Virus record (IMG/VR): IMGVR_UViG_3300036846_000860 | Coordinates: 1-50,937 of that record | Strand: one strand, 5' to 3' | Length of the DNA: 50,937 nucleotides | Source: a virus | The notes under the pieces: generated by a model | What the model was told of the DNA's origin: nothing | Database searches by the model: none | Seen by the model: only the letters and a program-made list of their open reading frames with translations | Made by a program: the position numbers and the translations under genes | Shown here: positions 1 to 50,937 of the stretch, one piece after another | Numbering within the stretch: the stretch's first letter is position 1 | Layout: each line of letters starts with the position of its first letter

Positions 1-184
1 GAGAAACTCCCATCACGGGCATGCCGGTTGAGAACACCTGTAGTGAGTCCCGGATTGGGATCGATGCACGCAGACCCAACCCAGCCGCATACGACCAGAT
101 CATTAACTTGTTGATCACGGTCTTGGGAGCGGAAAACTCAGTAGGCAGCTGAGCGTACGACGGGAGGTGTTTATTCATCGCCTC
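1..184. repeat. Terminal direct repeat, left copy
   Basis: These bases are repeated at the right end of the window (50754-50937) with a single difference, A at 128 versus G at 50881. The difference turns a GCT alanine codon into GCC and is therefore silent. The large minus-strand reading frame continues in phase across the join. The repeat is best read as the overlap of a circular assembly (circularly permuted or circularised phage genome, unit about 50,753 bp). A true short terminal repeat cannot be excluded from sequence alone. Confidence 0.9.
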
Positions 185-35699: not shown

Positions 35700-35851
35700 G
35701 TAACAGCCAAATACTAGCGCTCTACTGCCTCCTCTTCGCGATCTGGACCGCGTGTTTAGGTCTAAACATCGTAGTGTGGTTGGTTTACAAAGCCGTTTAC
35801 CACATAGCATACGGCGAGGAAATAAATGATCATCAACGTGAGTCGAAGTAA
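35696..35851 (+). CDS. Single-helix membrane micro-protein, 51 aa
   Basis: The ATG overlaps the preceding TGA (ATGA), and the frame ends 26 bases into the nuclease gene. It begins MSNSQILALY, has a hydrophobic helix (LLFAIWTACLGLNIVVWLVY) and a short charged tail. Coupled starts and the clean transmembrane segment support a real gene. Possibly a small holin-like or membrane-regulatory peptide. Confidence 0.65.
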   Translation: MSNSQILALYCLLFAIWTACLGLNIVVWLVYKAVYHIAYGEEINDHQRESK

Positions 35852-36830
35852 ATCATTCCAATCTTGCCAACAATACGCGTACAACTGGGATGAGTTACGG
35901 TTGTACCCAACCCGTGAGGCAGATCCGTTAGTAATCGGAGAAGGGTACCACCTCGGTAGTGAAATCATCACGCGCTCGGCTGACGTTAACGAAGCCGTAA
36001 AGTCGGTCGAAACCCGCATGCGTGAGCGTTACGCGAACCAGATGATTTTACCAGAAGAACGAGCCGACATCGAACGCAACATCGAATGGGCGAAACACGC
36101 AACGGTGCAGTGGGCGGAAAACTACAACAAAGCAGACTTCCGTGTGTTGTGGCCGGAGGTGAAAGGTTGTGTACCGTTACCGAAGACAGAACACCACTGT
36201 TTCTTCGCTCACCGTATTCTGCACCCAGACATCCCTTACAGTCTAACCGGTTGTGTCGGGCGTTATAACGACTGTTATATCCCACACTACTTCGCATTCC
36301 GCACCGACGGCATCATCGAGATGTATAGACAAATCTGGTTGCTCGAACAAAAGACAACCGCGAAAGCCGGCAGCCAAACATTCTGGACTCACTTCCAACT
36401 CGACAACCAAATCCGTGGGTATTGTTACGGGGTTTGGAGAGCGACCGGTGCGCTCGTCAACGGAGCGTTAATCAACGCGATTATCAAACACCACAAGGTT
36501 GTCACCGTCAACGGCGAGCGTAAATACCAACTCGACCCGACAAATGTGGGGTTTGAGCGCGAGCCGATCTTGGTAACGAAAGCAGACATGCTCGACTTCG
36601 AACGTGAATTAACACTGCTCGCGGATGAATACGAGCATAAATTCGCCCACCCAGACCTGATCGTGAAGAACCCACAAGCGTGCTTTAACTACAACCGAAA
36701 GTGCTACTACTGGGATCGGTGTAAACGTCATCAGGAACCCTTCGATGGAGAGTTTGCAGTACGGCAAGCCGACTATGTCGAGGAGAACTACAAAAAGGTA
36801 CTCGGATTGGAGGAGAAAGTTGAAGCCTAA
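35826..36830 (+). CDS. PD-(D/E)XK nuclease with Cas4/AddB-like Fe-S cysteines
   Basis: The core shows RTDG (D161) and LLEQKTT (E174, K176), the D-(x)n-ExK catalytic set, followed by the conserved QLDNQIRGYCYG helix (QxxxY motif) of RecB-like nucleases. Four Cys (C14, C286, C293, C299) bracket the domain as in Cas4/AddB iron-sulphur nucleases. The enzyme would resect DNA ends. It is the first gene of the recombination module with the permuted ATPase and the ssDNA-binding protein. A role in phage recombination or host DNA breakdown is likely. Confidence 0.85.
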   Translation: MIINVSRSKSFQSCQQYAYNWDELRLYPTREADPLVIGEGYHLGSEIITRSADVNEAVKSVETRMRERYANQMILPEERADIERNIEWAKHATVQWAENYNKADFRVLWPEVKGCVPLPKTEHHCFFAHRILHPDIPYSLTGCVGRYNDCYIPHYFAFRTDGIIEMYRQIWLLEQKTTAKAGSQTFWTHFQLDNQIRGYCYGVWRATGALVNGALINAIIKHHKVVTVNGERKYQLDPTNVGFEREPILVTKADMLDFERELTLLADEYEHKFAHPDLIVKNPQACFNYNRKCYYWDRCKRHQEPFDGEFAVRQADYVEENYKKVLGLEEKVEA

Positions 36831-37539
36831 ATCAGTTGTGTTGTTATCCGGCGGGCTCGATAGCTGTGTAGCACTCGCATGTGCTTACGAAGACACCGAC
36901 CCCGTCTTAGCTCTCTCTGTCTACTACGGACAGAAACATCAACGCGAGTTGAAAAGCGCTGTACAGATCTGTGAGCATTACAAACTCGACCATGAACTCG
37001 TCGATCTCTGCGACCTCGGTAACATTTTAGCCGACATGCACGCAACCGCGCTGATCGATCGGGAGGAGAAATTACCCTCCGGTCGGCGGATGTCCGAAAT
37101 GACCGCTCGCGTGCCACGCTCGTACGTTCCCGGTCGTAACACAATCCTACTGGCAATCGCACAGAGCATCGCGGAGGCACTCAATGCGGATGAGATTTAC
37201 TGTGGATTTAACGCAGTCGATTTCTCTGGATATCCAGACTGCAGACCCATCTTCGTTGAAGCCTTCAACCACCTTGCGCATTATTCGACCAAACGAGGGT
37301 ACGAGAACAATCCTATTATCCTCCGAGCTCCAGTTATCAATCTATCAAAAGCTAGTGTCGTACGCCGCGGACTTGATCTCGGGGCTCCTCTCGGCTTTAC
37401 CTGGAGCTGTTACAACGGCGGTGAACGCCCATGCGGAACCTGTGACTCCTGTATTATTCGATGGAACGCGTTTAAAGAAAATGGAGTAGACGATCCCAGC
37501 GGAGCCTACGAAGTAATCCCTCACAGGTCGGTGTTGTAA
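36820..37539 (+). CDS. queC: 7-cyano-7-deazaguanine (preQ0) synthase QueC
   Basis: The start is taken as TTG at 36820 after GGAGGAGAAAG, which gives the family's usual N-terminus. It has the PP-loop ATP motif LLSGGLDS (residues 8-15), YVPGRNTILL and the zinc cluster CYNGGERPCGTCDSC near the C-terminus. QueC converts carboxydeazaguanine to preQ0 using ATP and ammonia. At 239 residues the length is normal. It acts with FolE, QueD and QueE encoded nearby. It overlaps the nuclease gene by 11 bases. Confidence 0.93.
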   Translation: MKPKSVVLLSGGLDSCVALACAYEDTDPVLALSVYYGQKHQRELKSAVQICEHYKLDHELVDLCDLGNILADMHATALIDREEKLPSGRRMSEMTARVPRSYVPGRNTILLAIAQSIAEALNADEIYCGFNAVDFSGYPDCRPIFVEAFNHLAHYSTKRGYENNPIILRAPVINLSKASVVRRGLDLGAPLGFTWSCYNGGERPCGTCDSCIIRWNAFKENGVDDPSGAYEVIPHRSVL

Positions 37540-38282
37540 TGCCGCCTAAATACGCAACGGTAGCAATCGACAGCGCTGGTGAGCTAGCTCGCTTGTTCTT
37601 CAGTAAGGATATGGGCAAGACAAGCGGTGACCTCGACAAAATCCGGGCGATGAACAACTACCCGGGTAGCACAGAACGGATGAACATGCTCGTCCGGGCA
37701 ATGAAACAAAAACGCGACTCGGGGGTGGAAATTGTCTTCACGGCGCACGAGGATATCGAGAAAGTCTACGCGAAAGGGGGGCTCGGCGATAAACAAGAAC
37801 CGATCGCTGTCAAAGGATGGCCTGACCTCCCTGGAAAACGCGCCCCAGATGAATTTTGTCGAGCTGCTGACAACGTGCTCCACGTTCGGCGGATTAATGG
37901 CGTTGCTCACTGGATCAGTAGGAGAGAACCGATCGGGACCGGTGCTGAGTATTGGGAGGTTAAAGATCGGTTCAACGGACCCGCGGTTAATTCTGGAGTT
38001 CTCCCCGCCGATTACAGTGCCGTTGCTGAAGCTGTCAAAAAAGTCAACCCTGAATTCTGGCGTCCGCCTTACATATGGATGTTGTACGGCGCATTTGGAA
38101 TAGGTAAGACCCGCTCGTTGTTAACGTTTCCTCAACCGATTTTGTTAATCAACCTCGATAAGGGGGAGAAATCATTAACCCCAACCGAGGTGAAGAAAGC
38201 ACAAATGACGATTGATAGTACAGTCGACGTCGAGGACCAGAAAGACTACAACAAGTTCGTGAGCTTGATCTCGGGGGTTTAA
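37539..38282 (+). CDS. Circularly permuted Sak4/AAA_24-type recombination ATPase
   Basis: The start overlaps the QueC stop (TAATG) and the end overlaps the next start the same way. The N-terminus opens at the Walker B strand, YATVAIDS (D11), and continues through VEIVFTAHED, LPGKRAPDEF and DRFNGP, which is the order of the C-terminal half of Sak4/AAA_24 proteins. Only after this comes a Walker A strand-loop IWMLYGAFGIGKT (G184-T191) and TFPQPILLINLDKG, normally at the N-terminus. The domain halves are thus exchanged, with the cut just before the Walker B strand. Sak4-like ATPases assist single-strand annealing. The neighbouring nuclease and ssDNA-binding gene fit that role. Confidence 0.85.
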   Translation: MPPKYATVAIDSAGELARLFFSKDMGKTSGDLDKIRAMNNYPGSTERMNMLVRAMKQKRDSGVEIVFTAHEDIEKVYAKGGLGDKQEPIAVKGWPDLPGKRAPDEFCRAADNVLHVRRINGVAHWISRREPIGTGAEYWEVKDRFNGPAVNSGVLPADYSAVAEAVKKVNPEFWRPPYIWMLYGAFGIGKTRSLLTFPQPILLINLDKGEKSLTPTEVKKAQMTIDSTVDVEDQKDYNKFVSLISGV

Positions 38283-38500
38283 TGTTACGCATCGAATTCA
38301 CCATCCATGACCAACTCTGGCCGATGATCACAATGACCTGTATTCGGGAGTCATTCATCAACGGTAAGGTTGTACAACAGGAAAAGAAACAGTACGACCT
38401 CGCGGAGGTGAAAGCACAAGAGATGTTGAACAACCACCTCCGAGTGGCAGTAAACGAGATTATCGCGCGACACAAACCAAACACCACAGTCCCGCGGTAG
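38282..38500 (+). CDS. Small early protein, 72 aa
   Basis: One-base overlap (TAATG) with the permuted ATPase. Two beta strands (IEFTIHDQLWPMITMTCIRE) are followed by a helix (AEVKAQEMLNNHLRVAVNEI). No known family. It may be an accessory of the recombination module. Confidence 0.72.
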   Translation: MLRIEFTIHDQLWPMITMTCIRESFINGKVVQQEKKQYDLAEVKAQEMLNNHLRVAVNEIIARHKPNTTVPR

Positions 38501-38545: not shown

Positions 38546-38968
38546 ATGGCGATACACACTGACAATATGTCCAACGTCGCAGCACCTTCGGAGGCGGTAG
38601 ACGAAGGTTGGTACCACGTTCGAATCAGCAAGGTTGAGGAGACCTTGTCTGAATCGAGCAAGCAGCCGGTGGTTAAACTCCAACTCAAGATCCAGACCGA
38701 AGGAAACATGTTCGGTCGGACGGTACCGGACAACGCTAGCCTGCAATCCCACGCGTTGTTCAAACTCAAGGGGTATTACAAGGCGGTTGGCTACAACCCC
38801 GGCCCGGAAGGTCACGACCCGGAGAAGTTACTCGACGGGGAGTGTTACGTTTACGTCCAACACGCAACGTATCAGGGTAAACCAACAATCAACATCCCTC
38901 CGTACAGCATCCGATCGTTGAATGAAGGTGCGGGAAGGGGTACTCCTACAGCGAAAGCGGAAGAGTAA
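38546..38968 (+). CDS. DUF669-like single-stranded DNA-binding protein
   Basis: It starts with an ATG preceded by AAAGGAGAAAC. The 140-residue product has the OB-like pattern of phage DUF669/ssDNA-binding proteins: EGWYHVRISKVEETLS, VVKLQLKIQTEGN, LFKLKGYYKAVG and GECYVYVQHATYQGKP, ending in a charged flexible tail. It lies next to the Sak4-like ATPase, the usual partner arrangement of phage annealing systems. It would coat ssDNA during replication and recombination. Identity is inferred from pattern and context. Confidence 0.75.
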   Translation: MAIHTDNMSNVAAPSEAVDEGWYHVRISKVEETLSESSKQPVVKLQLKIQTEGNMFGRTVPDNASLQSHALFKLKGYYKAVGYNPGPEGHDPEKLLDGECYVYVQHATYQGKPTINIPPYSIRSLNEGAGRGTPTAKAEE

Positions 38969-39082
38969 ATGTGGGCTCTGTTGTTGATCGTTTGTTACGG
39001 CGCGTTCGTCTATTGGTTTGAGGGGCGGCTTGACCTTAAATCGGGCGAACGCGCCCGCCTTAAACGCCACCGAGGTGAGTAA
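38969..39082 (+). CDS. Single-helix membrane micro-protein, 37 aa
   Basis: It starts directly after the previous stop and ends overlapping the QueD start (TAATG). It has an N-terminal hydrophobic helix (MWALLLIVCYGAFVYWF) followed by a basic tail. Too short for a family assignment, but coupling on both sides supports translation. Confidence 0.6.
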   Translation: MWALLLIVCYGAFVYWFEGRLDLKSGERARLKRHRGE

Positions 39083-39438
39083 TGTATGTCATCCGAAAGC
39101 AGTTCAAGTTCAGCGCCGCTCATCATCTGGCGGGTCTGCCTGACGATCATCCTTGTTCGAGGCCTCATGGGCATAATTATACTGTTGAGGTCGTTTTAAA
39201 CAGCAAAGACCTCAACGATGTAGGGTTTGTCCGTGACTACCGCAACCTTGACATCTTAAAGAAGTTTATCGACCAAAACTGGGATCACCGTGACCTGAAT
39301 GAGGTCTTTCCCTACAACCCAACCGCCGAAAACCTCGCAGGTTGGTTGTACCAGTACTGTAAGGGGTTGTGGGTTGAAACCAACGGTGTGAGAGTGAGCG
39401 AGACCGACAAAACCTGGGCTGAGTACTGGGAGTATTAA
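39082..39438 (+). CDS. queD: 6-carboxytetrahydropterin synthase QueD
   Basis: A T-fold protein of 118 residues. It has AAHHL at 12-16, the catalytic and zinc signature CSRPHGH (C25, H29, H31), FVRDYRNLDILKKFI (Asp/Lys region) and a C-terminal ETDKTWAEY, all in family positions. QueD makes carboxytetrahydropterin from dihydroneopterin triphosphate, the second step to preQ0 after FolE. It overlaps the HNH gene by one base (TAATG). Confidence 0.93.
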   Translation: MYVIRKQFKFSAAHHLAGLPDDHPCSRPHGHNYTVEVVLNSKDLNDVGFVRDYRNLDILKKFIDQNWDHRDLNEVFPYNPTAENLAGWLYQYCKGLWVETNGVRVSETDKTWAEYWEY

Positions 39439-40210: not shown

Positions 40211-40918
40211 ATGCAGGAAGGGGTTCTCCCACTCGCTGAGAAATTCATCAGCGTACAGGGTGAAGGGCAATGGGTAGGAACGCTCATGTTGTTTGTTAGG
40301 TTGGCTGGATGTAATGTTGGTCGTCCAGCAGCTGCGGTGAAAGCTGAACAACACCCCTTCCCTGTTTTACCAAACGGCCGAGAGGCGATGGCGTGTACGA
40401 CATACGATGGTCGTACTTTCCCATGTGATACCGATTATTTACGTTCGTCAACAATCGCCCGGCATGAAATCGTTGACGAAGCCCGTCACGAGCGTATCGA
40501 ACACGTTTGTATTACCGGCGGCGAGCCGATGATGTATGCTGATAAACTGTTGTTACTCGCCGACGATCTCCGCCCATTCAACACAAAAATGCATATTGAG
40601 ACGAGTGGCACGATCATGCCGCCGAAGGTGTTGTCGCGCTTGATCATGCCGGATGTTTGGATTACCGTCAGTCCTAAGATCGGCGCGCTGGATGAGATGA
40701 TTAACCGTTCCGACGAGCTTAAGTTGTTAGTCGACGACAGCTTCGATATGTACAAGTTAACGCAAGCGATGCTCGACCACCGGAACGTTTTCCTCTGCCC
40801 AATCAACGGTGTTGACGAAATCACCAAACACAACGTGGAAAAGTGTTGTGAAATCCAGCGCACAATGCCTTGGTGGAGGATCTCATTCCAAGTACATAAA
40901 TTGTTCGGGTGGCGGTAG
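40211..40918 (+). CDS. queE: 7-carboxy-7-deazaguanine synthase QueE (radical SAM)
   Basis: The start at 40211 follows AAAGGAGG. It has the family N-terminus EKFISVQGEG, then RLAGCNVG (C34), a spaced cysteine C62 and FPCDTDY (C72) in place of the compact CxxxCxxC, and the SAM-binding segment ITGGEPMMY. QueE uses SAM and a 4Fe-4S cluster to form carboxydeazaguanine. The wide cysteine spacing (34/62/72) is unusual and seems to be the extended phage-type variant. It fits with FolE, QueD and QueC. Confidence 0.88.
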   Translation: MQEGVLPLAEKFISVQGEGQWVGTLMLFVRLAGCNVGRPAAAVKAEQHPFPVLPNGREAMACTTYDGRTFPCDTDYLRSSTIARHEIVDEARHERIEHVCITGGEPMMYADKLLLLADDLRPFNTKMHIETSGTIMPPKVLSRLIMPDVWITVSPKIGALDEMINRSDELKLLVDDSFDMYKLTQAMLDHRNVFLCPINGVDEITKHNVEKCCEIQRTMPWWRISFQVHKLFGWR

Positions 40919-41416: not shown

Positions 41417-41657
41417 GGTAAACCACGTACGTTACGGAGATTATGCAAAACAATCCCGTACCGTTCGAATGTTGAAAGACGTATTGTGTGAAGGTGCAAG
41501 CTGGCATCTCACGACTTGCGCACAACGCGAAAGCCTCGATATGATCTGCAACAAAATCGGTCGTATCGTTAACGGTGACCCACGCTTGATCGACAGTTGG
41601 CTCGACATCGCTGGCTACGCTCAATTGGTCGTAGACGAACTAACAAAGGAGGAGTAG
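41292..41657 (+). CDS. DUF6378-like protein, about 121 aa
   Basis: The C-terminal half, CAQRESLDMICNKIGRIVNG followed by DSWLDIAGYAQLVVDEL, matches the pattern of the DUF6378 phage family (helical, with a conserved DSWxDIAGYAxL). The start is unsure. ATG 41292 gives a long overlap with the preceding gene, and a TTG near 41359 is an alternative. It overlaps FolE by one base (TAGTG). The biochemical role is not established. Confidence 0.72.
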   Translation: MNMNRHLRVSPDPKNKTTTTPELQTPLGGHLPNVPNVRDRIEVNHVRYGDYAKQSRTVRMLKDVLCEGASWHLTTCAQRESLDMICNKIGRIVNGDPRLIDSWLDIAGYAQLVVDELTKEE

Positions 41658-42199
41658 TGAAGACCCATCTCGTTGAAAAAGGTGTAACATTAATCCTACA
41701 AGGATTGGAGGTCGACCCCAACGACCACAACTATCTTGACACCCCGGAGCGTTATGCAAGAGCACTCTACGAGATGTTCAACCCTACCGACACCGAGTGG
41801 GCCACCTTCACTGAAGAGTTCAGCGACTTTATCCTTCTGCGTGGGCACCAGTTGTTCTCACTCTGCCCTCACCATTTATTCCCCGTTAAGTTTAACGTCA
41901 GCGTGGCGTATATACCGAACGGTCACGTCCTCGGTCTTTCGAAACTCGCGCGTCTTCTCCATGAGTGTAATCGTAACCCTCTTCTCCAGGAGGGCTTTAC
42001 CAAAATGGTTGTTGATAAAGTCCACCAAGTTTGTTCGGGGGTTAAAGGAGTGGCGGTTTTTATTCAAGGCGAACACGGTTGTCTATCCATGCGAGGGGTT
42101 AAATCCGACGCCGACTTCGTCACATACCGTCTTGACGGTTTATTTAACGAGGATAAAGACCTAGAGCGGAGGTTCTTCGACCTTGTCAGAAAACGTTAA
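41657..42199 (+). CDS. folE: GTP cyclohydrolase I FolE
   Basis: The start is GTG at 41657 with AAAGGAGGAG upstream. The zinc and catalytic signature SLCPHHLFPV (C70, H72, H73), HVLGLSKLARL and GEHGCLSMRG (C142) are all present. The enzyme converts GTP to dihydroneopterin triphosphate, the first step toward preQ0. At 180 residues it is slightly shorter at the N-terminus than cellular FolE but complete in its core. It overlaps the polymerase gene by 17 bases. Confidence 0.93.
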   Translation: MKTHLVEKGVTLILQGLEVDPNDHNYLDTPERYARALYEMFNPTDTEWATFTEEFSDFILLRGHQLFSLCPHHLFPVKFNVSVAYIPNGHVLGLSKLARLLHECNRNPLLQEGFTKMVVDKVHQVCSGVKGVAVFIQGEHGCLSMRGVKSDADFVTYRLDGLFNEDKDLERRFFDLVRKR

Positions 42200-44693
42200 C
42201 GACGGGATCGTCTGGGGGGAAGGACCCTACAGCGCGAAGGTAATCATCCTCGGGCAAAACCCTGGAGAGGAGGAAATGCGTCATGCACGTCCATTCGTTG
42301 GTGGATCAGGCCGCGTATTGGATCGGGGTCTTCAGCGTGTTGGTTTGGCTCGGTCTGCTTGTTATGTTAGTAATATTTGTAAGCATTTCGTCCCGCCGGG
42401 TCAACCCCTGCCCCACTCACTTGTTCAAGCTGACCGTCACCTACTCGAACGGGAGCTGGACACACTCACCCGTGCTGAAATCATCCTCACGTTAGGGAAG
42501 GAGCCCTTCGATGCACTCACCGGACGAGATTTCAAGACCCGGCATAACAGAAAAAACGCCGAAAAAAGCAGTACTTATTGGCTTCGAGGTTGTCCTTACA
42601 AGTGGGAACGAAATGGTAAAAGCTACTGGATTGTGCCCGCTGTACATCCCAGCTTCGTTATGCGCACCGGATTTGTGGAAAGCCCGCTCTTTGAAGTTGA
42701 CCTGGAGCGGGTTGCCCGTTTCAACAACGGAGCTCGACCTCCCGACGAACACTTCAACTACCACCCCACGGATAGAGAGGTAATAGAATATGTCGACGAG
42801 TGTATCGCTGCAGGAGAGTTTGGAACTGATATTGAGACTCCAGAAGCTGCAGTTGATGATGATGAGCTTGACCCAACCTACATCACCCCCGTCGAACTCG
42901 TTGGTTTATCTGCGCGAGTTGGTGAGTCTGTGGGAGTCAGACCTGACCAATTTGATCTCATCAAGAGGTTATTTGCTGCGAGACCGGACGGTAAACGCCT
43001 GACGTGCTGGACTCATAACGGAGGTAACTTTGACTACCCCAAACTACGCGCCTGGTTCGACCTCGACGGGATCAGAAAAGCTGACACTATGCTGGGAATG
43101 CATCTCCTGTGGCCGCATCTCACCAATAAAGACGCAGCTACCTGCTTTAGTATTTTCGGCGACATTCCGTACTATAAAAACACACGGCTTATCGATCCCG
43201 GTTTTTACAACACAGTTGGCAACTGCAGAGACACGTATGGAGCATTATGGGCCGGCCGTAACATTCTGCGGGCGATGCGACAATTCCCGAGGATGGAGGA
43301 TTTGTTTTGGAATCATATGATGGGGATTGTTGATTGGATCACGGAGGTACGTGTTAAAGGCACGAACTGCGATACCGTTCAAGCTGACCGGGTCTTTTTA
43401 ACGCTGATGAAAACGCTGGAAGCGTACGAGGTTTGGTGGAATAAAAACATTCCCGCGTTTAGCTGGTCGAGTCCGAAACAGTTGATTAACTTGTTCAGTC
43501 AGATGGGAATGCCGATCTTCAAACGTAAAAGGGAGAAGAAGGATGAGGATGGGAATAAAGTCAGAACCTTCACCCCAACGTGCGACGACGAAGCGCTTGA
43601 AGAGTACGTCAAACGGGGGAACAAAACCGCGGCGCTGGTCCAAACCATGCGAGGGCTCAAGCATGCAGGCGACTTTATGTCAATTGCCAAGTCAGATGGC
43701 AGAATTCACCCTCGACTTAAAGCTCACGGTCAAGTCGGCGGTAGAATACAAGCGGTTGATGGCAATGTTCAGACAATCCCAGAGGAGCTCGCAGGGATTT
43801 ACCCGCGTGAGATCGTGGTACCGGATGATCCGTCAACGCAATCGATCGGTTGTGCGGATTACAGCCAGATCGAACTCAGGTTATATGCAATTCAATCAGG
43901 TGCTAGAAGCCTTCTTGACCGAATGGCAACGGGTGACTACATCTATGGTTTTTTCTACGAGGACATTTTCGGCAAACCGTTCTTCAAAGCCGGCCAGCCC
44001 AGAACTAAGCGCGCTATACTCCCAGAGATTCGCCCGTGGGAAATCTTAGTTGTTAAATCCTGGCCGTTGGGGTTTATTTACGGGAGGGGAATCCCCGAAC
44101 CCACCCCGGAGATGATAAAGACGTTGGGAGCGGTTGCAGCGCGTAAACGTCCTAGGGAGATACATGATAGATTCCACCGAGAAAACCCCGAGATCAAACG
44201 CTTCCACACGCAACTCGAATTCCAAGCAAGTCGAACGGGTTATCTCATATCTCCGTTCGGGCGTATACGACGCTTCCCCAACGTTAAAGGTGCGTACAAT
44301 GAGATTTTGGCATTCCCGGGACAGAGTGTCGCGGTTGACATCCTCATCCGGAACGCTCTTCGCAAACTTCCTACGCTACTTGCTCCGTTCGGGGGGAGGT
44401 TACTGTTCCCGGTGCACGATTCAGCAGTATTCCAGTTCGAGACGAAGTACGTTCGAGAGGTAGATCAGGTTGTCGCCAACGCGATGGAAGCACCTCTCCC
44501 TGAACTAGACAACTGGGCGATCCCAACAGAGCGCAAATACGGACCGAATTGGGGGAAGTTGACCAGCCTTGACAAATTCATTGAAAGAATGGACCCGCTC
44601 GCAGTTGGAGCAGTTGGAGACACTCAAACAGCTGTTAGCGGGCAGACAATTAAACCCGAAGTTGTTACCGGAGATAATATCGTGGCTTCGTAG
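42183..44693 (+). CDS. UDG-PolA fusion DNA polymerase
   Basis: Residues 1-190 form a uracil-DNA-glycosylase superfamily domain with LGQNPGEEE, RPFVGGSGRVLDRGL and AVHPSF. The N-terminal CxxC of family-4 iron-sulphur enzymes is absent. Residues about 200-390 are a 3'-5' exonuclease (FGTDIETP, NGGNFDYPKL, CRDTYGA). Residues 420-800 are family A polymerase: motif A DYSQIELR (D559), motif B with K625 and YG (Y633), motif C HDS (D746). In the O-helix the residue equivalent to E. coli Phe762 is Leu629, and the Arg754 equivalent is Ile. It would replicate the phage genome; uracil handling is inferred. Confidence 0.9.
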   Translation: MSENVNDGIVWGEGPYSAKVIILGQNPGEEEMRHARPFVGGSGRVLDRGLQRVGLARSACYVSNICKHFVPPGQPLPHSLVQADRHLLERELDTLTRAEIILTLGKEPFDALTGRDFKTRHNRKNAEKSSTYWLRGCPYKWERNGKSYWIVPAVHPSFVMRTGFVESPLFEVDLERVARFNNGARPPDEHFNYHPTDREVIEYVDECIAAGEFGTDIETPEAAVDDDELDPTYITPVELVGLSARVGESVGVRPDQFDLIKRLFAARPDGKRLTCWTHNGGNFDYPKLRAWFDLDGIRKADTMLGMHLLWPHLTNKDAATCFSIFGDIPYYKNTRLIDPGFYNTVGNCRDTYGALWAGRNILRAMRQFPRMEDLFWNHMMGIVDWITEVRVKGTNCDTVQADRVFLTLMKTLEAYEVWWNKNIPAFSWSSPKQLINLFSQMGMPIFKRKREKKDEDGNKVRTFTPTCDDEALEEYVKRGNKTAALVQTMRGLKHAGDFMSIAKSDGRIHPRLKAHGQVGGRIQAVDGNVQTIPEELAGIYPREIVVPDDPSTQSIGCADYSQIELRLYAIQSGARSLLDRMATGDYIYGFFYEDIFGKPFFKAGQPRTKRAILPEIRPWEILVVKSWPLGFIYGRGIPEPTPEMIKTLGAVAARKRPREIHDRFHRENPEIKRFHTQLEFQASRTGYLISPFGRIRRFPNVKGAYNEILAFPGQSVAVDILIRNALRKLPTLLAPFGGRLLFPVHDSAVFQFETKYVREVDQVVANAMEAPLPELDNWAIPTERKYGPNWGKLTSLDKFIERMDPLAVGAVGDTQTAVSGQTIKPEVVTGDNIVAS

Positions 44694-46020
44694 TTACCCG
44701 AAATCGTTCAAACCACTCGAGCGTGATGCAGTACGGCAGTTAGTGTGTGATGCTTTCGGGATGACGAAGGATAAGCTAGACGAGTTGTTGATCGGTCACG
44801 ATAATACCAACGGACAAGGTGTTCTCCCCGTTGTCGACGCCACAGCCGCGGTGAGGGCAGAGCAGGAGTTGTTAGACCTACTCCCCTCCCGCGGTTTGTT
44901 ACGGGATTATGTTGAGTACACATCGCATTCAGAGGCACCGCTTGCCTATCACGTGTTCAGCGCGCTGTGCGCGATTGGGACGTTGTTAAATAGACGGGTT
45001 TGGTTTGACATGGGGATTTATAAAGTATACCCCACACTTGGTATTATCATTTTGGGCCCGTCCGGCATCAAGAAGACCAGCGCAGCCAACATCATCGTGA
45101 ACATGCTACAGGAGTTATCACTCGTGAAGGTGTACAGCGAAAAGCTAACCCCTGAAGCGTTAATCGAGAGCATGAAGGGAGATAACGCGGTAGGTTTAGT
45201 TTACGCGCCCGAAATGACAGTGTTCTTAAACAAACAAAAATACAACGAAGGGTTGGTGCAAGTCATCACGCGCTTCATGGATTGTCCTGACATCTGGGAG
45301 AGCAAGACAATCGGGAGGGGTACAAGTGTCATACGTAACGTGGCCATTAGCAGCCTTATGTGTTCTACACTTGATTGGTTCGTCAAGGCTACGCCGGAAG
45401 ATAGTTTCGGAGGCGGCTTCATTGCACGAAATCTCCTCATTGTGCAGAATACTTCGACACGGATTGAACCTATACCGCAACCTGGAGATCCTCACCTACG
45501 TGGTAATCTTATTTCTGGGCTTGCTACTATACACGCATTCGCTGGACAAATCCACTTCTCCAGCGCAGCCCGCGAACGATACATTGATTGGTACTCCACA
45601 ACCCATCTCGAAGATATCAGACAACCAGCGCACGAGTTGTTGGCAACTTACCATAACCGAAAACCCGACCACGCTAAAAGGATCGGGATTTGTCTGCATC
45701 TTAGCGAGCACGGGACGTTTGAGATGTGTGAGCGATGTTTTAGTAAAGCCCTTGACTTGCTCGGGTGGGCAGAGCAGTTCCTTCCCGAGTTATTGAAGCA
45801 GATGTTTAAGACCGGGGTTGGGGAGAGTCACGACGAGGTTGCGAGACTGGTTGCAATCAACGCTCCGATGCCGCATTCTGACTTGGTACGGAAAATGTCC
45901 GGTAAAATGTCCGCGATCGATCTCCGCACAATCATCAACTCGTTGAAGGAAGCAAACATCATCCGTGAGCATGCTGACAACGTCGGGCATTACTACGAGA
46001 TGGTGAAGGAGGAATCGTGA
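44569..46020 (+). CDS. DUF3987-like P-loop ATPase, probable replicative helicase/primase partner
   Basis: The 483-residue ATPase has SEAPLAYHVFSALCAIGTLL ahead of the P-loop ILGPSGIKKTSA, a KKT variant of GKT, and LVYAPEM as Walker B/sensor. This order is typical of DUF3987-like phage replication proteins. The C-terminal 70 residues form a winged helix (HSDLVRKMSGKMSAIDLRTI). The annotated TTG start overlaps the polymerase by 125 bases, and the true start may be further in. It likely unwinds or loads at phage forks. Confidence 0.75.
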   Translation: MTNSLKEWTRSQLEQLETLKQLLAGRQLNPKLLPEIISWLRSYPKSFKPLERDAVRQLVCDAFGMTKDKLDELLIGHDNTNGQGVLPVVDATAAVRAEQELLDLLPSRGLLRDYVEYTSHSEAPLAYHVFSALCAIGTLLNRRVWFDMGIYKVYPTLGIIILGPSGIKKTSAANIIVNMLQELSLVKVYSEKLTPEALIESMKGDNAVGLVYAPEMTVFLNKQKYNEGLVQVITRFMDCPDIWESKTIGRGTSVIRNVAISSLMCSTLDWFVKATPEDSFGGGFIARNLLIVQNTSTRIEPIPQPGDPHLRGNLISGLATIHAFAGQIHFSSAARERYIDWYSTTHLEDIRQPAHELLATYHNRKPDHAKRIGICLHLSEHGTFEMCERCFSKALDLLGWAEQFLPELLKQMFKTGVGESHDEVARLVAINAPMPHSDLVRKMSGKMSAIDLRTIINSLKEANIIREHADNVGHYYEMVKEES

Positions 46021-47933: not shown

Positions 47934-48190
47934 GCTGGTGTCTCCTTTGCGTTCACTCCGTTAGATTTAACAACAACCTCAGAAGGTTTGGTACCTGACG
48001 CAGTAGAAATACTCGGGTGTATAGTGCTCCGACCGTTGAGAGCAACATACCCAACGATAAATACGAAAAGCTTGTACGCTTTCTGAAAAGTTGGGTAGTC
48101 GTTAAAGACTTCCCACGGGGGTAGTAACGTGTGTGCGACAGAAGCAATTGCAACAATCTCACCACCGGTTTTAATCAGATCTACGCTCAA
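47930..48190 (-). CDS. Holin-like small membrane protein, 86 aa
   Basis: The hydrophobic segments IVAIASVAHTLLPP and YKLFVFIVGYVALN flank a short loop with EVFNDYPTFQ. The C-terminus is polar and charged. Start and stop overlap both neighbours by four bases. The arrangement resembles small phage membrane proteins predicted as holins. No endolysin is adjacent, so the holin label is tentative. Confidence 0.6.
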   Translation of the reverse strand: MSVDLIKTGGEIVAIASVAHTLLPPWEVFNDYPTFQKAYKLFVFIVGYVALNGRSTIHPSISTASGTKPSEVVVKSNGVNAKETPA

Positions 48191-49491
48191 GGGTTCCCTC
48201 CAACGAATTTAAGTTGATTGTGTCCAACGGCTAGCTGTCTGTACAGTTCGGCGTAGTCCGCACTTAACTCCGCCACGGCATCTGTACGGTATTGCTTCTC
48301 GGGGATCCGCATCCGTTTACAAATCTCATACGGCTCACGGAACGAACCCTCGATGCTGTCTCCCAATCCCGTTACTGCCGCGATAGCTCCACCGCCCCTG
48401 GTAGAGACCAACCTATCACGTGCGTCGAGCATGACCTCAAAAAAGTACAGGTGAGGTCTATCCGAACGCGTTAAACCCTGTATTGGGATACCGCCTGGGT
48501 GAACAAACTCATCACTAGGATGTGGTGGTATGCTTACCCTAACCGCACTTGCATATCCTGCCTTGAGAGGGATTTCATCAGGCTGTTCCCCCCTCGCCAT
48601 CTTCGCGACGATCTCACCCAGGTCACCGTCAACCAACTCAAGCAAGGATGGAAATGCGTCGTAACCAAAGCGTGGTGTAAACTCAAGCGCCCAAACACCT
48701 TCTTCATTCACAACAGTATTGAGGTCGACAGGGCCGACGTAGTTGTAGTCGCGCAGTAGGGGAGCCATCAACTTGATGCCCTCCTCAATCACACGGTTAG
48801 TTTGCCGTACAGCCCAAACAACGTTGAAAGCACAACCGCTGGACGGACCGAGGTCCTCATTCATAACAGCTTTATGTTCGATCGTGTGGTTGAACGGCTC
48901 CATCCACTCATACCCGTTGAACCATCCCTCTGTGCTAACCGCGATACCTTCGACAAAGTTCTGAAAGATGAACTCAGGCGACTTGCGCGAGATTGACTCA
49001 AAATAATCCAACATCGTGAGCATGTCGAGTTTGTCACATGATACGTACGACCCCACCCCATGCTCGTCAGAAAACTTTCCGGTTGGCTTAAAGACCAGCT
49101 TGCCGGCATGTTTATTGACATACGCTCGCCCCTCCTCCCACGAGTAGAACGTTTTGAACTCCGGCACCTTTATTCCAGCTTGCGCCATAAGTTCAAAGGC
49201 AAGTTCTCGATCCAGTTCCAGATTGTCTGCAAAGACACTACCGAGAAATACAAAGTGACCACGAGCACGAAGACGATCAGCAGTGCTACCCCCTCCAGTA
49301 CTGTCAAACACAACGATTGTATCTTTCGCCAGATGGTCATCCCACTTGTCGATCTTGTCGATCAACCCCTCGTAGTTTTGGCGTTCGGTCTTTCCAACAA
49401 TGCGTGCTTTCACCTCATGTCCTGCTGCGCGTAGACGGAGGGCGAAGCCCAACCCGTCGCCTTTCAACGACATAAGAAGGAACTTCGCCAT
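48187..49491 (-). CDS. PurD-like ATP-grasp ligase
   Basis: The 434-residue protein follows the GAR-synthetase (PurD) plan: N-domain with SLKGDGLGFALRLRAAGHEV, ATP-grasp strands KLVFKPTGK and FIFQNFVEGIAVSTEGW, then the metal-binding ALEFTPRFGYDAFPSLLEL. The superfamily joins a carboxylate to an amine via acyl-phosphate. The PurD substrate loop is not clear, so the true substrate may differ. It lies in the late operon between a 63-residue protein and the holin-like gene. A role in purine supply, DNA modification or peptide ligation is possible. Confidence 0.83.
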   Translation of the reverse strand: MAKFLLMSLKGDGLGFALRLRAAGHEVKARIVGKTERQNYEGLIDKIDKWDDHLAKDTIVVFDSTGGGSTADRLRARGHFVFLGSVFADNLELDRELAFELMAQAGIKVPEFKTFYSWEEGRAYVNKHAGKLVFKPTGKFSDEHGVGSYVSCDKLDMLTMLDYFESISRKSPEFIFQNFVEGIAVSTEGWFNGYEWMEPFNHTIEHKAVMNEDLGPSSGCAFNVVWAVRQTNRVIEEGIKLMAPLLRDYNYVGPVDLNTVVNEEGVWALEFTPRFGYDAFPSLLELVDGDLGEIVAKMARGEQPDEIPLKAGYASAVRVSIPPHPSDEFVHPGGIPIQGLTRSDRPHLYFFEVMLDARDRLVSTRGGGAIAAVTGLGDSIEGSFREPYEICKRMRIPEKQYRTDAVAELSADYAELYRQLAVGHNQLKFVGGNP

Positions 49492-49829: not shown

Positions 49830-50937
49830 GTTCTGGCACCTCCTTTAAAGGTTTAAATCCTAACACCTTCAAAAGCGCTGGCGTTGGATGACCGTTCTCG
49901 TCGAACGGATCCTCCCCGCTCTCGATTACTTGGTAGATGTTTTTTGCCTCTAACCCCGTTGGGAAGAAGTTCATTGGGTATTCTAACACCTGCCGACGTG
50001 CCTCGCGACCATCCGGACTATCCTTCGGCGCTTGCAACAGGTTCTCGATGAACTTCGCATGAGGCGACATATCAACCCCAGCCGGGCTGAACCAGAACCA
50101 CTTACCTACATCCGCCCCCGCTCCGTTCATTGCTGATACCGCAGCGTAGTTGCTAGCAGCCCAGAGCGCGGTAGTCTTCATCGCCGTTTGTGGGTGCTCG
50201 CTGAATTTTGACGCCCCACGTTTCAAAAAGTCCATATAATTCAACGGCCACATTCCAAACTGCCCAAAGATACGACCCGCGCCAGTACGAAGAACGGTAG
50301 GTTGAGTTCCGCGTCGATACGGCCAGAGGGTGAGATCGAGTGTCTCAAGCGCTATGTTGCGGGCGATATCCTCATCACTAAACCCTGTGTCGTGTAACTG
50401 CGCTAGCGTCCGATCGACGAAGGGTTTGTCCGCCCACCACAATGAGGTGTTATCCTGGTGGATTAGTTCATCAACTCCCATCTTACCCGCGCGGTATTGA
50501 CGTACTGCGTTAAGGGCAGAATCGTACTCCCCATTGAAAACCACAGCTCGTGCGATGTTATGACCCCACCGGGATGGAGACAGTAAGCGGTTAGCAAATT
50601 GGGTGATGCGGTCTGTACTAGCACCAGCTGGCAGTTCTGAGAAGATATCTCCATACAGCTCTCCGATCGTATGCTTGCCTAGTAATGCTCCCTGTTCCTC
50701 AGCAAGCTGCCAACCCTGTTTTGTTAGGCCCTTCGCCAACCCGGACATGAAGCGAGAAACTCCCATCACGGGCATGCCGGTTGAGAACACCTGTAGTGAG
50801 TCCCGGATTGGGATCGATGCACGCAGACCCAACCCAGCCGCATACGACCAGATCATTAACTTGTTGATCACGGTCTTGGGGGCGGAAAACTCAGTAGGCA
50901 GCTGAGCGTACGACGGGAGGTGTTTATTCATCGCCTC
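49765..50937 (-). CDS. Giant internal virion protein, C-terminal part
   Basis: This is the continuation of the frame that starts at 3367 and leaves the window at position 1; the two parts share the 184-base repeat. It is about 330 residues beyond the shared segment, helical and basic-aromatic, ending ELGYGEHHRPGR. It includes WSYAAGLGLRASIPIRDSL and a Gly/Met-rich helix (VSAMNGAGADVGKWFW). In the circular unit the protein is 1451 residues. The C-terminal codons overlap the acidic micro-protein. Confidence 0.88.
   Translation of the reverse strand, partial: EAMNKHLPSYAQLPTEFSAPKTVINKLMIWSYAAGLGLRASIPIRDSLQVFSTGMPVMGVSRFMSGLAKGLTKQGWQLAEEQGALLGKHTIGELYGDIFSELPAGASTDRITQFANRLLSPSRWGHNIARAVVFNGEYDSALNAVRQYRAGKMGVDELIHQDNTSLWWADKPFVDRTLAQLHDTGFSDEDIARNIALETLDLTLWPYRRGTQPTVLRTGAGRIFGQFGMWPLNYMDFLKRGASKFSEHPQTAMKTTALWAASNYAAVSAMNGAGADVGKWFWFSPAGVDMSPHAKFIENLLQAPKDSPDGREARRQVLEYPMNFFPTGLEAKNIYQVIESGEDPFDENGHPTPALLKVLGFKPLKEVPERDLEHQMLFELGYGEHHRPGR
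50754..50937. repeat. Terminal direct repeat, right copy
   Basis: Repeats bases 1-184 with G instead of A at the position equivalent to 128. It joins the window into a circle and preserves the frame of the giant minus-strand gene. Confidence 0.9.

What the first reader, a model, noticed from the sequence alone, without database searches (positions are those of the whole stretch)
37539..38282. Circularly permuted Sak4/AAA_24-like recombination ATPase
Seen: the protein opens at a Walker B strand (ATVAIDS, D11), runs through segments that normally close a Sak4/AAA_24 protein, and only then shows Walker A (residues 184-191) and the strand that normally opens it, ending just before where Walker B would follow. 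Both gene ends have one-base stop/start overlaps with neighbours, so the permuted order is built into the operon and is not an obvious misassembly. The flanking RecB/Cas4-like nuclease and DUF669-like ssDNA-binding gene support a recombination role. Circular permutation is known for some P-loop GTPases (RsgA/YjeQ); I know of no described permuted Sak4.
Basis: partly seen in the sequence, partly recalled or inferred. Interest (0 to 1): 0.87.

Follow-up and report, generated by a model that had tools for sequence, protein, structure and literature searches.

The report
Circularly permuted phage Sak4 recombination ATPase
In a family of environmental phages, the gene for a Sak4/RecA-like recombination ATPase has been cut in the middle and rejoined at its old ends, so the two halves of the same enzyme are encoded in swapped order; this order is kept by selection in at least 15 independently assembled phage contigs and appears not to have been described before.

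Summary
Window 37539-38282 (+) encodes 247 aa that open on the Walker B strand (D11), run through the His-Glu and KDRFN segments that end ordinary Sak4 proteins, and only then show Walker A (184-191) and the Asp-x-Gly strand. Canonical Sak4 profiles match it in two stretches in swapped order. Rotating the sequence about residue 170 turns these into one longer, higher-scoring match (hhalign: 37 columns, E 5e-12 becomes 204 columns, E 5e-22). The same order occurs in 14 further IMG/VR contigs from 14 metagenome datasets, at about 46-67% identity. There it forms one clade (support 100/100) with saturated synonymous sites, low dN and conserved gene order. The 11 records searched whole hold no second, canonical Sak4. 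Misassembly, chimera and pseudogene are therefore excluded for the clade. AlphaFold2 gives a compact domain (pLDDT 80, pTM 0.82) whose elements are a rotation of a canonical Sak4 control. The control matches 308 PDB chains by order-dependent Foldseek; the permuted model matches none. Most likely it is a working ATP-dependent ssDNA annealing protein, acting with the nearby Cas4-like exonuclease and DUF669 ssDNA-binding protein; activity is inferred. New variant of a known kind; no held paper describes a permuted Sak4 or RecA-fold recombinase.

The parts
37539..38282 (+). cp-Sak4: circularly permuted Sak4/AAA_24 ATPase gene (247 aa + stop)
   Evidence: two swapped stretches of phrog_124 and AAA_24; 14 relatives with the same order
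37539..38006 (+). residues 1-156: the part that is C-terminal in canonical Sak4 (Walker B strand to the last strands)
   Evidence: phrog_124 positions 107-236 match residues 3-146; alignment
37551..37574 (+). Walker B strand YATVAIDS (residues 5-12), D11 invariant where covered
37746..37751 (+). H70-E71 of the AHE(D/Q) motif after the following core strand (sensor-like), invariant where covered
37770..37844 (+). residues 78-102, low-confidence glycine/lysine-rich loop, candidate ssDNA-binding loop (inferred)
   Evidence: pLDDT below 50; conserved ARGG..KGQ..EP.AVKGWPD
37962..37976 (+). K142-D-R144-F-N motif; aligns with canonical AK[ND]R motif
38007..38069 (+). residues 157-177: canonical C-terminal helix plus short linker that joins the old C terminus to the old N terminus
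   Evidence: alignment; helix 159-169
38070..38279 (+). residues 178-247: the part that is N-terminal in canonical Sak4 (beta1, P-loop, alpha1, beta2, alpha2)
   Evidence: AAA_24 positions 5-61 match residues 180-234; alignment
38088..38111 (+). Walker A GAFGIGKT (residues 184-191)
38157..38159 (+). D207 of the beta2 DxDxG motif, position of the RecA-family catalytic carboxylate (inferred), invariant in 15 members
35826..36830 (+). Cas4/RecB-like exonuclease, part of the same conserved cluster
   Evidence: phrog_1218 exonuclease E 6.5e-15; conserved upstream in every locus that reaches that far
38282..38500 (+). 72-aa conserved small ORF of unknown function between cp-Sak4 and the ssDNA-binding gene
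   Evidence: no family match; detected at 26-44% identity in most loci
38546..38968 (+). DUF669-type ssDNA-binding protein, likely partner
   Evidence: PF05037 E 1.4e-05; phrog_378 SSB E 0.0015; present in all loci

Best explanation
The gene encodes a natural circular permutant of a phage Sak4-type RecA-core ATPase. The canonical order is beta1/Walker A/alpha1-beta2(DxDxG)-alpha2 | beta3 Walker B ... AHE ... KxR ... C-terminal helix. Here the chain is opened at the loop between alpha2 and the Walker B strand, and the old C-terminal helix is joined to the old N-terminal strand by a linker of about ten residues. The order becomes WB-AHE-KDRFN-linker-WA-DxDxG. Shown: the order, full retention of both halves, conservation, a single clade in this sample, purifying selection, and absence of a canonical copy in the records searched whole. 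Inferred: the halves fold into one RecA-like core with an intact nucleotide site (K190/T191, D11, D207), which binds ATP and ssDNA. It then works as the phage's single-strand annealing protein on ends resected by the Cas4-like exonuclease and coated by the DUF669 protein. It probably arose by tandem duplication or fusion of a sak4 gene followed by loss of the outer halves.
For: Profiles: phrog_124 gives 2 stretches/77 bits native against 1 stretch/88 bits rotated; AAA_24 49.7 (2 stretches) against 55 (1); the members with both halves intact give two swapped stretches natively and one after rotation. hhalign against canonical Sak4: 37 columns E 4.6e-12 native, 204 columns E 4.9e-22 rotated. tblastn against phages: native order no match at 0.01; rotated order 246 records at E up to 10, 56 covering at least 80%, several annotated Sak4. 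Fourteen other contigs with the same order; clade support 100/100; dS saturated or nearly so, dN 0.09-0.45; motif residues invariant apart from one Walker A glycine. AF2 pLDDT 80.1, pTM 0.82; element order is a rotation of the canonical control, which finds 308 PDB matches at E<=0.001, the listed best being RecA/Rad51/Sak4-type, while the permuted model finds none. Exactly one Sak4 gene per record in 11 records, both halves in swapped order. Conserved cluster exo-QueC-cpSak4-small ORF-DUF669-...-polA-primase. Canonical relatives also sit next to a Cas4-type exonuclease or near an SSB. Canonical HK620 Sak4 is an ATP-dependent annealase stimulated by its neighbouring SSB (PMC5928155).
Against: No biochemical data. 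No permutation-aware structural superposition could be run, and the AF2 alignment has only 9 sequences (models range 68.7-80.1 pLDDT). Two members (L019, L055) have Q or E in place of the last Walker A glycine, so ATP turnover may not be uniform in the clade. The DUF669 match is modest. Foldseek non-matching could partly reflect divergence rather than permutation alone. The duplication origin has no intermediate to support it.
Confidence: 0.8

Rival explanations
1. Domain-swapped version: the two halves do not close on each other within one chain, but the Walker A part of one subunit completes the Walker B part of the next, so the permutation forces an obligate oligomer or filament.
For: The chain is broken inside the core, the connecting linker is short, and canonical Sak4 forms filaments (Sak4 of phage 52A, PMC11846896). 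Sequence data alone cannot tell intra- from inter-chain completion.
Against: AF2 of a single chain gives a compact fold with pTM 0.82, and the element order is a plain rotation of the canonical control's.
Confidence: 0.1
2. A permuted but repurposed Sak4 relative: it keeps the fold but serves another role (for example a regulator or loader of the exonuclease or replication proteins) rather than annealing.
For: Walker A glycine is lost in two members. The whole clade sits on a long stem (2.27 changes per column). It lies in a replication/deazaguanine gene cluster.
Against: Catalytic positions K190, T191, D11, D207 are invariant where covered. The exonuclease + Sak4 + ssDNA-binding context is the usual one. 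No other Sak4 gene was found in the records.
Confidence: 0.15
3. Artefact: misassembly, chimera or a decaying gene fragment.
For: Only metagenome-derived contigs carry it; no isolate phage was found. One relative (L017) has an apparent frameshift.
Against: Same order in 15 contigs (window plus 14 from 14 dataset numbers); saturated dS with low dN; conserved synteny. The window carries a 184-bp direct terminal repeat, so it looks closed and the gene lies far from its ends.
Confidence: 0.01
4. Not Sak4 but a different permuted P-loop family (for example a GTPase or ABC type) that only resembles AAA_24.
For: Direct sequence matches to solved structures are weak (8rc5 Sak4 at E 0.017).
Against: phrog_124 and AAA_24 are the only significant family matches, and all motifs align end to end with canonical Sak4.
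Confidence: 0.02

Closest known systems
Sak4 single-strand annealing proteins (phrog_124; phages HK620, PA73, 52A; Pfam AAA_24 PF13479)
   Same: All core motifs and secondary-structure elements; exonuclease and ssDNA-binding neighbours; profile match E 1.6e-24 once rotated.
   Different: Order of the two halves is swapped; forms its own clade on a long stem; linker between old C and N termini; Asp in the DxDxG motif where many canonical members have Glu.
RecA/Rad51 superfamily recombinases
   Same: Canonical Sak4 control model matches RecA/Rad51 structures; same motif set.
   Different: No RecA N- or C-terminal extra domains; permuted core.
Circularly permuted GTPases (RsgA/YjeQ, RbgA, YqeH)
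   Same: Also a natural circular permutation of a P-loop NTPase, with Walker A after motifs that usually follow it (G4-G5-G1-G2-G3).
   Different: Different NTPase class (GTPase, ribosome assembly); cut at a different place; unrelated origin.
Circularly permuted phage DNA methyltransferases
   Same: Permuted enzymes are known in phages (PMC7824862).
   Different: Unrelated fold and function.

Membership tests
Sak4 (phrog_124) / AAA_24 | Significant match to the family profile over the core | tested here: met
   phrog_124 E 3e-21, AAA_24 E 5e-13 above curated cut-off
Sak4 (phrog_124) / AAA_24 | Walker A, DxDxG, Walker B, AH(E) and KxR motifs all present | tested here: met
Sak4 (phrog_124) / AAA_24 | Canonical linear order Walker A then Walker B | tested here: not met
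   Order reversed in all 13 members that cover both halves, including L017, whose Walker B segment is split off by an apparent frameshift; hence filed as a permuted variant, not an ordinary member
Sak4 (phrog_124) / AAA_24 | RecA-core-only fold | tested here: inconclusive
   AF2 compact, element order is a rotation of the control; no permutation-aware superposition available
Sak4 (phrog_124) / AAA_24 | ATP-dependent ssDNA binding and annealing, stimulated by cognate SSB | not testable with these tools
   known for HK620 Sak4 (PMC5928155)
Sak4 (phrog_124) / AAA_24 | Genomic neighbourhood with exonuclease and SSB | tested here: met
   canonical comparison
Circularly permuted GTPases | G4/G5 (NKxD, SA) motifs before G1 | tested here: not met
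   sequence has no NKxD; family scans give only Sak4/AAA_24 as significant

The most novel reading that the evidence does not exclude
This is the first natural circular permutant of a RecA/Rad51-fold recombinase. It is a single-origin clade that has replaced canonical Sak4 as the only Sak4-type protein of its phages, and moving the chain ends to the Walker B edge changes how subunits polymerise on ssDNA.
Probability: 0.55. Interest if true: 0.8.

Novelty: new variant of a known kind. Interest (0 to 1): 0.72.

Why it matters
Natural circular permutations of P-loop NTPases are rare; the textbook case known to me is the RsgA-type GTPases. A permuted RecA-core recombinase under strong selection shows that the fold of the recombination ATPase tolerates moving its ends into the middle of the core. 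Polymerisation and the in-trans nucleotide site in this family depend on where the ends lie, so this provides a natural experiment on which parts of filament or ring assembly are essential. It also shows that order-dependent annotation (tblastn, Foldseek, one-stretch HMM reading) misses or halves such proteins, so more may be hidden.

Tried and rejected
Misassembly or chimera: rejected by 14 other contigs and an apparently closed genome. Pseudogene: rejected by dN far below dS. A second canonical Sak4 elsewhere in the phage: none in 11 whole records. An N-terminal extension carrying another Walker A upstream in frame: the frame is closed 21 codons upstream in the window and 0-26 codons upstream in relatives, with no Walker A there. 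Circular RNA or trans-splicing restoring canonical order: not pursued, since members end in a stop codon and no intein or intron was seen (inference). Searches without result: INPHARED phages in native order, plasmids, GTDB genomes (these rely on exact peptide patterns and can miss distant relatives). Foldseek with the permuted model gave no reliable match, explained by the control. No close canonical sister of the clade was found by scanning with the Walker A half.

Full report
What is there. The ORF at 37539-38282 (+) encodes 247 aa, and both ends overlap the neighbouring genes by one base in TAATG. The protein starts on the Walker B strand (YATVAIDS, D11). It passes the AHED (H70-E71) and KDRFN (142-146) motifs and a helix (159-169), and only then reaches beta1/Walker A (GAFGIGKT, 184-191) and the INLDKG strand (D207). 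It ends after the helix that in ordinary Sak4 precedes Walker B.

Family and order. The only significant Pfam family is AAA_24 and the only PHROG is phrog_124 (Sak4-like annealing protein), each in two stretches. Residues 3-146 match phrog_124 positions 107-236, and the Walker A part (window 38067-38240) matches positions 43-97. Rotating the chain at residue 172 gives one stretch and a higher score in both libraries. I built a profile from 13 canonical Sak4/AAA_24 proteins and scored rotations of the window protein in steps of five residues. The native order gives 47.8 bits in two swapped stretches; rotations that open the chain at residues 120-175 give about 54 bits in one stretch; 200 shuffles reach at most 2.9 bits. 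The other members with both halves intact behave the same way. Profile-profile comparison gives 37 aligned columns (E 4.6e-12) natively and 204 (E 4.9e-22) rotated. In the alignment of rotated members with canonical proteins nothing of the core is missing, and both junctions fall in loops.

Not an artefact. Relatives with the same order were found in 14 other IMG/VR contigs from 14 dataset numbers: L001, L002, L003 (cut), L007, L008, L009, L010, L011 (cut), L013, L015, L017, L019, L051, L055. L003 and L011 are cut by the contig end, so L011 shows only the Walker A half with its stop codon. L017 carries an apparent frameshift near the Walker B end. The rotated sequences form one clade against 20 canonical proteins with support 100/100 and a long stem. 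Synonymous sites are saturated or nearly so, with dN about 0.09-0.45, in both halves. The order exo-QueC-cpSak4-(small ORF)-DUF669-QueD-(HNH)-QueE-FolE-polA-primase is conserved as far as each contig reaches. Eleven records searched whole each have one phrog_124 gene, always swapped. The window has a 184-bp direct terminal repeat with one mismatch, so it looks like a closed genome of about 50.75 kb with the gene far from the ends.

Structure. AlphaFold2 with 9 permuted sequences gives pLDDT 80.1 and pTM 0.82, low mainly in loop 78-102. A canonical control (L038, 9 sequences) gives pLDDT 74.5 and pTM 0.77. The control's elements are beta1-alpha1-beta2-beta-alpha2-beta3(WB)-alpha-alpha-beta4-...-helix. 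The permuted model's elements are essentially the same list started at beta3. Foldseek, which needs the same order, finds 308 PDB matches at E<=0.001 for the control (best ones RecA, Rad51, DMC1, Sak4 8rc5) and none for the permuted model; BFVD also gives none at that level. This is the pattern expected of a permutation, although a permutation-aware superposition was not available.

Distribution. No match in native order was found in 50,697 phage records, 72,556 plasmids or GTDB representative genomes. With one divergent permuted query, canonical Sak4 genes of Pseudomonas and Serratia phages were hit in two pieces, and several of these sit directly after a Cas4/PD-(D/E)XK exonuclease gene. Salmonella phage BP63 has Sak4, an SSB and a Cas4-domain exonuclease close together. 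These show the same functional neighbourhood.

Mechanism. Shown: order, completeness, selection, single clade, and invariance of K190, T191, D11, H70, E71, D207, K142 and R144 among members that cover them. Inferred: the protein binds ATP between beta1/P-loop (now C-terminal) and the Walker B strand (now N-terminal), binds ssDNA through loop 78-102, and anneals complementary strands exposed by the exonuclease and covered by the DUF669 protein. This follows HK620 Sak4, which needs ATP and is stimulated by its SSB (PMC5928155), and 52A Sak4, which forms filaments (PMC11846896). Two members lack the last Walker A glycine (GPQGYQKT in L019, GTIGMEKT in L055), so turnover may vary. A tandem duplication or fusion with loss of the outer halves is the likeliest origin; no intermediate was seen.

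Novelty. No paper in the held open-access library joins Sak4 with circular permutation, and searches for permuted P-loop or RecA-type recombinases gave nothing relevant. Permuted GTPases and permuted phage methyltransferases are known. Subscription literature and preprints were not searched. I file this as a new variant of a known kind.

Noticed in passing
window 1-184 and 50754-50937: 184-bp direct terminal repeat with one mismatch, indicating a closed (complete) phage genome of about 50.75 kb.
   Followed up: yes
window 36745-37539, 39082-39438, 40226-40918, 41597-42199: QueC, QueD, QueE and FolE (preQ0/deazaguanine synthesis) interleaved with the recombination genes; QueC lies between exonuclease and cp-Sak4. 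Suggests 7-deazaguanine DNA modification; no DpdA search was made.
   Followed up: partly
L019 and L055, Walker A: Last glycine of Walker A replaced by Q (GPQGYQKT) and E (GTIGMEKT) while K, T and other motifs are kept.
   Followed up: no
L017:4380-4560: Apparent frameshift just after the Walker B strand in this relative; real or an assembly error.
   Followed up: no
window 38282-38500: Conserved 72-aa ORF of unknown function between cp-Sak4 and the DUF669 gene, detected in most relatives.
   Followed up: partly
window 48187-49491 (-): 434-aa protein with weak ATP-grasp GARS (PurD-like) match (E 1.3e-06).
   Followed up: no
L002:9523-9999: ORF with AAGLFDGEGSF, a LAGLIDADG-type homing endonuclease motif, inserted between the DUF669 gene and QueD; other relatives have an HNH gene nearby.
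   Followed up: no
window 44569-46020: DUF3987/primase-like protein next to a PolA-type DNA polymerase (42183-44693).
   Followed up: partly
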